A stretch of DNA of 23,232 bases from a virus: positions 1 through 23,232 of the IMG/VR virus record IMGVR_UViG_3300037961_004895. The stretch is one strand, 5' to 3'. The notes beneath the pieces are model-generated. The model was not told where the DNA came from. It searched no databases and worked only from the letters and a program-made list of their open reading frames with translations. Positions 1-1,150 of this stretch are shown piece after piece. How positions within the stretch are numbered: position 1 is the stretch's first letter; each line of letters begins with the position of its first letter. A program made the translations under genes and the position numbers.

Positions 1-610
1 TGCCACTTTCCATTAAGTCTTTTATCATTTGACCTTTTGTTTTGGTTAGTGTCTTGAATATAGCTTCGGCTTTATCTTTATTATAAACACCTTTAGCACT
101 AAATATCTGTCTCATATTATTCTTCATATAATCTGAAGCCAAGTTATAATTCTTAACTGGTGCTGATTCTTTCTTAAAATCTTCTGCCTCTACATCAGAA
201 TATAATCCATATTCATATAAGTCTAGTAGCTTTAATGTAAGGCGATCTTTCCATCTTTTCTCTGCCATATTAAAGAAGTAACCACCCTTACCTTTTACAT
301 TGTCACGTGTAGCGTCAGAAGTAGTCCAGACTTCTTTTGTATAGTCCTCGCCACCATCTGCAATTCTTACAACTCTACCCTTACCCATTATGGCAACCCC
401 AAAAAAATCTGTGTTATTATAAAGTATCTCTACTCTAGGCTCAAAGAACTCAACTCCTTCATGGTTTGCAATTCTGCTTACTGCATCATGCTTCAATATG
501 AAATTGATTCCTACACACCAAATGTCTTTGGTTTTGTCATTTTGGTCTTTAGGTAAACTCAACCTATATTTTTCTGCTATCTTTTTTATTTGTTCTGGTA
601 TTTTAAACAT
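1..610 (-). CDS. Conserved phage protein, C-terminus beyond window (possible recombination-associated)
   Basis: An open frame of 203 codons runs off the left edge. It starts at the ATG at 610 behind AAAGGAGAG, spaced 6 bases. The visible protein begins MFKIPEQIKKIAEKY. It has a W-C-V-G-I-N-F-I-L-K-H-D segment, then a loop holding MGKGRVVRIADGG, then NMAEKRWKDRLTLKL and GLYSDVEAEDF. From memory this order (IAxHEG, AMAEKRAxDRxILKL, YSEEEADDF) recurs in a phage family often encoded among recombination or single-strand-annealing genes, but that association is a recollection and no catalytic residues can be named. It is the last gene visible in operon A and the only one of ordinary size there. The 385 bases before it hold the structured RNA. 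Confidence 0.8.
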   Translation of the reverse strand, partial: MFKIPEQIKKIAEKYRLSLPKDQNDKTKDIWCVGINFILKHDAVSRIANHEGVEFFEPRVEILYNNTDFFGVAIMGKGRVVRIADGGEDYTKEVWTTSDATRDNVKGKGGYFFNMAEKRWKDRLTLKLLDLYEYGLYSDVEAEDFKKESAPVKNYNLASDYMKNNMRQIFSAKGVYNKDKAEAIFKTLTKTKGQMIKDLMESG

Positions 611-686
611 CTTAACTCTCCTTTGTTATAATTCATAGATTGAATATAAATCAATATAAGTTCATAAACAAGCAAAATAAAAATGC

Positions 687-716
687 TTGACAAATTTATA
701 ATTATAATGATATATT
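687..716 (+). promoter_or_regulatory. Consensus-like promoter for the structured RNA
   Basis: TTGACA at 687-692 is a perfect -35 hexamer. An 18-base spacer separates it from TATATT at 711-716. Transcription would begin near 723, exactly where the first paired base of the RNA structure lies. A second TATAAT at 717-722 is too far from this -35 (24 bases). The direction opposes the flanking genes, so this promoter would not serve them. The call rests on hexamer match and spacing only. Confidence 0.5.
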
Positions 717-722
717 TATAAT

Positions 723-988
723 CCGTTATCGGTTTGGTTTGATACTTTTGGCGATAATGGTTTAAAGTGGTTACCAAAAGGGGTTGTTTCTCAAAGCCAC
801 ATACGATCCGAAAGATTTTGAGTAGAGAATATATCATTAACGATGAATAAATCAAATCTCGCAAATTATAGGTTAATTTATAATTTGTATGCACGAAAGC
901 GACTCGGAAGGTTGTAATTTCTAAAGGCATAGGGAACCTACTCCTAGAGACAGGGGTAGGGACTCCTCTATGCTTTAGCTCTCTAAAG
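723..988 (+). ncRNA. Candidate structured non-coding RNA with H-type pseudoknot
   Basis: This stretch is visibly richer in G and C than the AT-rich DNA around it and lies between two minus-strand genes. Reading the plus strand, 723-731 pairs with 752-760 (9 bp, one G-U), and 745-751 pairs with 774-780 (7 bp). The second stem starts inside the first loop, so the two make an H-type pseudoknot with abutting stems. Further hairpins are 790-796/816-822 (7 bp), 834-837/843-846, 861-870/879-888 (10 bp), and a long one at 921-978. In the last, CTAAAG-CATAG pairs with CTATGCTTTAG around one bulge, and CCTACTCC pairs with GGGGTAGG. Several pairs are G-U on this strand and would be A-C mismatches on the other, which favours plus. 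The 3' end is not marked by a U-run and could lie anywhere from 978 to about 1003. I do not recognise an Rfam class; tmRNA, RNase P and 6S hallmarks are absent. Confidence 0.5.
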
Positions 989-994
989 GTTGTA

Positions 995-1150
995 TTATTC
1001 AACGATTCTAACATATACAGGATTATAAGGACTAGAACCTAAACTACTATTAACTTCAAAACCTTCATTGTTAGAACTCATGCTTAAATCACAACTATTT
1101 AAACATATCGCCAAAATATAACCTAAAATTATAAACTTAATTTTGCTCAT
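995..1150 (-). CDS. Small putative lipoprotein
   Basis: A 51-residue protein starting at the ATG at 1150, with GAGGAGAAGAAAA as ribosome site. An upstream start at 1207 is possible, but it lies inside the preceding gene in another frame. Residues 1-18 are a basic N-terminus and hydrophobic stretch (KIKFIILGYILAICL) followed by L-N-S-C, which fits a lipobox with the cysteine at position 19. The mature part is short and rich in serine and asparagine, ending SPYNPVYVRIVE. It overlaps the preceding gene by 14 bases. A lipid-anchored surface peptide would suit superinfection exclusion or a lysis accessory role, but that is inference. Confidence 0.7.
   Translation of the reverse strand: MSKIKFIILGYILAICLNSCDLSMSSNNEGFEVNSSLGSSPYNPVYVRIVE

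What the first reader, a model, noticed from the sequence alone, without database searches (positions are those of the whole stretch)
687..988. Probable new structured small RNA with its own promoter, antisense to the early operon direction
A GC-richer island in very AT-rich DNA begins exactly at the predicted start site of a TTGACA-18-TATATT promoter. It opens with an H-type pseudoknot: 723-731 with 752-760, and 745-751 with 774-780, the stems abutting. Three more hairpins and a long 3' hairpin follow. Non-Watson-Crick pairs in several helices are G-U on the plus strand and A-C on the minus strand, which points to transcription from plus, against the flanking genes. I do not recognise any known class.
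Basis: partly seen in the sequence, partly recalled or inferred. Interest (0 to 1): 0.76.

Follow-up and report, generated by a model that had tools for sequence, protein, structure and literature searches.

The report
Phage RNA with matched address repeats
Several unrelated groups of uncultured bacterial viruses make the same previously undescribed, intricately knotted RNA, which carries one short "address" sequence twice; the address changes fast from virus to virus but the two copies always change together, which suggests that the RNA recognises its own DNA or an opposite-strand copy of it.

Summary
The finding is right and understated. Window 723 to about 996, plus strand, is a real structured non-coding RNA with no Rfam match. 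A relaxed pattern recovered 60 distinct homologues (300 nt or more) in uncultured phage contigs of unrelated groups. The predicted pseudoknot (P1 723-731/752-760, P2 745-751/774-780) is strongly supported: 95% of cells paired against 72% in shuffles, covariation 0.578 against 0.149, at most 0.10 when slid. Further helices (P3, P4 as a second pseudoknot, P5, P8/P9) recur with unrelated sequences. A TTG-17/18-TAnnnT promoter sits at the same place in 29 of 45 distinct upstream regions (1.0 expected), so the plus strand is transcribed.

New: the RNA carries a 7-13 nt direct repeat (window 908-916 and 986-994) either side of the last hairpin. Its sequence varies fast, but both copies match in each phage (7.2 of 8 own, 3.65 swapped, p about 1e-4). 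G/A mismatches always have G in copy 1 (48 to 0). No complement occurs in the phages clearly above chance. My preferred, unproven reading: copy 1 is a guide pairing with the strand complementary to copy 2, as an R-loop (ColE1 RNA II-like) or with an antisense transcript.

The parts
687..692 (+). -35 element TTGACA
   Evidence: TTG at this distance in 29 of 45 distinct homologous upstream regions, 1.0 expected
711..716 (+). -10 element TATATT; start site expected near 722-723, the first bases of P1
723..996 (+). structured non-coding RNA, about 274 nt (3' end inferred from where conservation stops)
723..731 (+). P1 5' strand (pairs with 752-760)
   Evidence: 99.6% of cells paired, 6 of 7 counted pairs with two-sided changes
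732..744 (+). conserved P1 loop, GGNTTGGTTNNA core
   Evidence: invariant columns in A6
745..751 (+). P2 5' strand CTTTTGG (pairs with 774-780; first pseudoknot)
   Evidence: 100% paired, two pairs covary: CUUUUGG/CCAAAAG, CUUCUAG/CUAGAAG, CUUAUUG/CAAUAAG
752..760 (+). P1 3' strand
767..772 (+). P3 5' strand (pairs with 795-800)
   Evidence: 26 distinct stems over 60 sequences; 83% paired on A6, partly misaligned
774..780 (+). P2 3' strand, followed by invariant GGG
788..792 (+). P4 5' strand in the P3 loop (pairs with 825-829; second pseudoknot)
   Evidence: 26 distinct stems over 60 sequences, found by a stem search within fixed windows
795..800 (+). P3 3' strand
813..818 (+). P5 5' strand (pairs with 854-859)
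   Evidence: 30 distinct stems over 60 sequences
825..829 (+). P4 3' strand
854..859 (+). P5 3' strand
861..888 (+). P6 hairpin
   Evidence: z -3.4; the shorter lineage D RNAs appear to lack it
895..921 (+). P7 small hairpin holding repeat copy 1
   Evidence: one search shows the fold, but it is no better than shuffles there; changes GAAA/UUUC, GAG/CUC, AAG/CUU in close relatives and GCAGC/GUUGC, GCAAU/AUUGC in lineage C; not significant family-wide
908..916 (+). repeat copy 1 (AAGGTTGTA), the proposed guide
924..976 (+). P8/P9 hairpin with conserved GGGGTAGG 3' strand
   Evidence: z -3.1; best stems in homologues 19.3 against 13.2 with a shuffled strand
986..994 (+). repeat copy 2 (AAGGTTGTA), the proposed matched site at the RNA's 3' border

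Best explanation
Shown: a new class of phage non-coding RNA (about 270-290 nt) starts at a conserved promoter, folds into interlocked pseudoknots (P1/P2 and P3/P4) followed by P5, P6 and a P8/P9 hairpin, and carries a fast-changing direct repeat whose two copies match. Inferred: copy 1 is an address or guide that base-pairs with the strand complementary to copy 2. The only regular place where that complement is found is the opposite strand of the RNA's own gene, at the RNA's 3' border. I think the most likely event is that the nascent RNA is captured there on the template DNA strand as an R-loop, in the way that RNA II of plasmid ColE1 forms a persistent hybrid, and so opens the DNA, primes replication or otherwise marks the phage's own DNA. 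Steps shown: RNA, structure, strand, promoter position, matched repeats, lack of another complement. Steps inferred: pairing, R-loop, replication or recognition role. The confidence below is for the mechanism; that this is a real new RNA class I hold at 0.97.
For: RNA class; promoter and strand; no Rfam match. Repeats: the top direct repeat lies at the same structural place in nearly every member; fixed-register identity 7.2 of 8 own against 3.65 swapped, p about 1e-4; between lineage C pairs the octamer is 62% identical while the 5' RNA is 87%. Direction: G in copy 1 / A in copy 2, 48 cases in distinct pairs against 0 reversed, which is what rG:dT (or rG:rU) pairing of copy 1 to the complement of copy 2 tolerates and what the reverse pairing would not; gene conversion is hard to reconcile with that neighbouring base never being converted. 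No own-specific complement in the locus and 32 exact complements against 21 expected in whole records. DNA just after copy 2 is 80% A+T against 66% for the loci. In the window's lineage a gene like replication-initiation/primosomal proteins lies about two genes away. ColE1 precedent: PMC4412123, PMC5043065.
Against: No transcript, hybrid or origin data. The G/A direction is largely one conserved position counted in related sequences, and copy 2 lies in A-rich DNA. Cumulative GC skew does not place an origin at the RNA in the window's lineage; in the other lineages the minimum lies near the RNA but coincides with the change of gene direction. An antisense transcript would offer the same complement as the template strand. 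In several lineages the neighbour is a terminase small-subunit gene or an XRE regulator, not a replication gene. P7, which should present copy 1, is not significant family-wide.
Confidence: 0.35

Rival explanations
1. Dual-seed regulatory RNA: copies 1 and 2 are two seeds for the same host (or competitor-phage) RNA, and both change when the target changes.
For: Repeated seeds are known in bacterial sRNAs (general knowledge). The complement is not in the phage itself clearly above chance, so a host target is possible. Fast change fits host adaptation.
Against: Gives no reason for the one-directional G/A difference or for copy 2 always standing at the RNA's 3' border; near-identical RNAs have different octamers.
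Confidence: 0.2
2. Antisense control: copy 1 makes first contact with the opposite-strand transcript of the divergent operon (early genes in the window, terS in other lineages), whose RNA carries the complement of copy 2; the RNA then controls that operon.
For: The leftward genes lie on both sides of the RNA in the window; in other lineages terS starts within about 50 nt of the RNA, divergently. G-U pairing explains the G/A direction equally well.
Against: The opposite transcript would be complementary to the whole RNA, so a matched second copy is not needed; the elaborate plus-strand fold is unexplained.
Confidence: 0.17
3. Packaging RNA: the RNA works with the small terminase to recognise the phage's own packaging site, copy 1 reading copy 2 as the site.
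For: Head-to-head neighbour of terS (Terminase_2, PF03592 above cut-off for the lineage C protein) in three lineages; phi29 pRNA shows RNAs can serve packaging (general knowledge).
Against: In the window's lineage terS lies 4-5 kb away and the RNA neighbours other genes; the extra N-terminal domain of terS has no significant structural match.
Confidence: 0.12
4. RNA-only scaffold or ribozyme in which the repeats are processing or ligation sites.
For: Interlocked pseudoknots with invariant loops; no protein partner shared by all carriers. GOLLD and ROOL are phage RNAs that form RNA-only complexes (PMC12286853).
Against: No guide complementary to the repeats was found in the RNA.
Confidence: 0.1
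5. A minus-strand protein (frame 586-1014).
For: The frame stays open over the RNA in close relatives.
Against: Broken in distant homologues, ends not conserved, no family match; covariation and G-U pairs require a plus-strand RNA.
Confidence: 0.01

Closest known systems
ColE1 plasmid RNA II (replication primer RNA)
   Same: Non-coding structured transcript from its own promoter; an RNA stretch meets the template DNA strand and forms a persistent hybrid that is needed for replication (PMC4412123, PMC5043065).
   Different: No homology; about half as long; a fast-changing matched repeat in place of an rG/dC stretch; no RNA I-like antisense RNA shown; replication role untested here.
GOLLD and ROOL RNAs
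   Same: Large, pseudoknotted RNAs of phages without known function (PMC12286853).
   Different: No Rfam match to either; shorter; no tRNA genes in the window; has the matched repeat.
phi29 packaging RNA (pRNA)
   Same: Phage RNA; here next to a terminase gene in three lineages.
   Different: No Rfam match; adjacency absent in the window; packaging role untested.
IS110 bridge RNA
   Same: RNA loops that read DNA next to their own gene (general knowledge).
   Different: No IS110-type recombinase (PF02371) in 22 carrier records; other architecture.
Group II intron, retron and DRT RNAs
   Same: Structured RNAs, some with repeats flanking a template (general knowledge).
   Different: No reverse transcriptase (PF00078) in 23 carrier records.

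Membership tests
Any Rfam 15 family | Match at or above the gathering score | tested here: not met
   Window, window 560-1100 at E<=5, L093, nine further homologous loci: none
ColE1 RNA II-like primer RNA | Upstream RNA stretch matches a downstream template stretch | tested here: met
   Copy 1 equals copy 2 in each phage while varying between phages; the match is shown, the pairing is not
ColE1 RNA II-like primer RNA | Own sigma-70-type promoter | tested here: met
ColE1 RNA II-like primer RNA | RNA-DNA hybrid and replication start at the downstream site | not testable with these tools
   needs R-loop mapping and origin mapping; GC skew inconclusive
GOLLD / ROOL | Covariance model match; often near tRNA genes | tested here: not met
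phi29 pRNA | Covariance model match | tested here: not met
phi29 pRNA | Required for DNA packaging | not testable with these tools
   terS neighbour in lineages B, C, D only
IS110 bridge RNA | IS110-type recombinase encoded alongside | tested here: not met
Retron / DRT / group II intron RNA | Reverse transcriptase encoded alongside | tested here: not met
Protein-coding gene on the minus strand | Conserved reading frame with conserved ends | tested here: not met
tmRNA-like RNA with a tag reading frame | Conserved reading frame at the repeat; tRNA-like domain | tested here: not met
   An AUG GCU CCR frame occurs in some members, but one-base deletions in both copies in L032 and L103 shift it; ARAGORN finds no tmRNA in the window

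The most novel reading that the evidence does not exclude
A phage RNA reads its own DNA through a hypervariable guide loop matched to an adjacent DNA site: an RNA-guided self-recognition system without a dedicated phage protein that starts replication, packaging or self/non-self discrimination, the matched pair acting as a strain-specific address.
Probability: 0.3. Interest if true: 0.93.

Novelty: categorically new. Interest (0 to 1): 0.82.

Why it matters
A structured RNA shared by otherwise unrelated phage groups, without a shared protein partner, must do something those phages need. The matched, fast-changing repeat is a feature I know of in no described structured RNA class, and it makes a mechanism directly testable: change copy 1, copy 2 or both. 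If the R-loop reading holds, it would be RNA-programmed recognition of own DNA in phages.

Tried and rejected
Complement of the repeat inside the RNA or its flanks: none specific to the own repeat. Complement or third copies in whole phage records: about chance; striking third copies at gene starts in G028, G036 and G038 proved no better than swapped repeats overall. Short reading frame at the repeat: frame not kept. Reverse transcriptase and IS110 recombinase: absent. Shared partner protein: none in all carriers. Cultured relatives: no convincing RNA match in 50,697 phage records, terminases under 35% identical, portal 22%. Bacterial genome hits L113/L114 (Streptococcus): lack the P1/P2 pairing and are rejected by the model. 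P7 as a family-wide helix: not significant. Small-terminase N-terminal domain as an RNA-binding fold: no significant structural match. GC skew as origin evidence: inconclusive.

Full report
1. Setting. The window is bases 1-23232 of a 28,923-base IMG/VR virus record of 34% GC. It holds terminase, portal, major head protein and endolysin genes. The finding lies between two leftward genes: one starting at 610 (a 203-aa frame cut by the window's edge) and a small frame ending at 995. Its relatives come from environmental viral contigs; no cultured phage is near, so the host is unknown.

2. The observation. The promoter TTGACA-18-TATATT at 687-716 is the best promoter-like hit in the first 3 kb. 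The strand folds better than shuffles, but the complement nearly as well (z -3.6 and -3.1), so homologues were needed. Rfam has no match.

3. Homologues. Scans with the neighbouring gene and the terminase gave 87 loci. Several show the RNA plainly at 69-98% identity and three more weakly. A pattern built on the invariant loop and P2 found 23 contigs (sequences), a more relaxed one 93. After requiring P1 and P2 pairing, I hold 60 distinct sequences of 300 nt or more. A covariance model of the first 109 positions separates them from chance: members 65-103 bits, a divergent member outside the seed (L050) at 39.9 bits, the best others about 22. Carriers fall into groups I call A (window type), B (G002-G004 and others), C and D, plus single deep branches (L110, L109, L048, L186, L155). 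Groups A and B share almost no structural proteins, and no protein is common to all carriers.

4. Structure. On a 34-sequence alignment, P1+P2+P3 pair in 95.0% of cells (72.2% in shuffles), with 136 two-sided changes (38) and covariation score 0.578 (0.149; 0 of 500 shuffles reach it); sliding the partners gives at most 0.103. P1 has 99.6% and P2 100% of cells paired. P3 shows 83%, because some sequences are misaligned there. Searching the same relative windows in each sequence gives 32 different P1, 10 P2, 26 P3, 26 P4 and 30 P5 stems over 60 sequences (stems listed per sequence). That search picks the best stem in each window, so P4 and P5 rest on position and recurrence, not on a shuffled test. 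P3 encloses the 3' strand of P2, and its loop pairs downstream as P4, so two pseudoknots interlock. P8/P9 stems score 19.3 against 13.2 with one strand shuffled. P7 is supported by changes on both sides inside groups A and C but not across the family. Many variable pairs are G-U on the plus strand, so the plus strand is the folded one. TTG-17/18-TAnnnT lies at nearly the same distance before P1 in 29 of 45 distinct upstream regions; shuffles give 1.0.

5. The matched repeat. Between P6 and P8 and again just after P8 nearly every full-length member carries the same 7-13 nt twice: AAGGTTGTA in the window (908-916, 986-994), GGTTAAATAG in L097, GGGTTATAA in L110, AGAGTCTA and AGAGACTA in L188 and L185, TACGGGGGTGAAA in L186. 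In L051 and L107 the copies are similar but not identical. With the register fixed by flanking bases and not by identity, copy 1 and copy 2 agree at 7.2 of 8 positions within an RNA and 3.65 between RNAs (19 distinct octamers, permutation p about 1e-4; four registers were misassigned by the script, which lowers the own value). Among group C pairs the 5' part of the RNA is 87% identical and the octamer 62%. L032 and L103 lack the same base in both copies. Mismatches between copies are G/A 48 times, A/G never (43 distinct pairs, related sequences included).

6. What the repeat could match. It has no own-specific complement from 240 bases before to 300 bases after the RNA. In whole records exact complements number 32 against 21 expected. 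Third copies at gene starts in three records looked striking but own repeats do little better there than swapped ones (0.894 against 0.871). So the only regular complement of copy 2 is the opposite strand of the RNA gene itself: the template DNA strand, or a transcript of that strand. Pairing of copy 1 with it tolerates G in copy 1 over A in copy 2 as a wobble; the reverse pairing would not.

7. Mechanism. I therefore prefer a guide reading: copy 1 recognises the complement of copy 2 at the RNA's 3' border. The nearest known behaviour is ColE1 RNA II, where an RNA stretch meets the template strand and forms a persistent hybrid needed for replication (PMC4412123; PMC5043065). DNA after copy 2 is A+T-rich (80% against 66%). 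The replication role is a guess. Rivals are two seeds for a host RNA, antisense control of the divergent operon, and a role with the small terminase, whose gene is the head-to-head neighbour in groups B, C and D (Terminase_2; positions) but not in the window. GC skew does not decide.

8. Alternatives closed. A minus-strand frame is open across the RNA in group A but broken in most distant homologues, without conserved ends or family match. No reverse transcriptase or IS110 recombinase is encoded. A tmRNA-like reading frame at the repeat is not kept.

9. Novelty. It belongs to no Rfam family. Large phage RNAs of unknown function exist (GOLLD, ROOL; PMC12286853), so 'phage structured RNA' is not new as such; the class, and the matched hypervariable repeat, I found described in none of the search results that I looked at, from a library that lacks most subscription journals and preprints. 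I rate it categorically new as an RNA class; if the ColE1-like reading proves right, 'new variant of a known kind' would be the better label for its mechanism.

Noticed in passing
L153, L159, L173, L190, L211: about 60-170 nt after repeat copy 2: A second conserved non-coding block (TTRAAAAATAGTATTAGAATGTGTG, then C-rich runs, then GGTTGAAAATT in some) follows the RNA in groups C and D, next to terS; it could be a packaging site or promoter.
   Followed up: no
terS of L167, L153, L111 and relatives (alignment A7): The small terminase in groups B-D has an extra N-terminal domain of about 100 residues, mostly beta strands in the model, without a significant structural match.
   Followed up: partly
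window 586-1014, minus strand, and relatives: One minus-strand frame stays open across the whole RNA in nearly all close relatives although they are 69-98% identical with indels; probably an effect of the RNA's sequence, but unusual.
   Followed up: partly
L221, between repeat copy 1 and P8: About 30 extra bases are inserted here, yet the two repeat copies still match.
   Followed up: no
L017, L112, L048 and others (cluster C11), 1-4 kb from the RNA: A conserved phage protein with a Cys-containing N-terminal region, of the kind annotated as GP88 (recalled, not tested), is common among the carriers.
   Followed up: no
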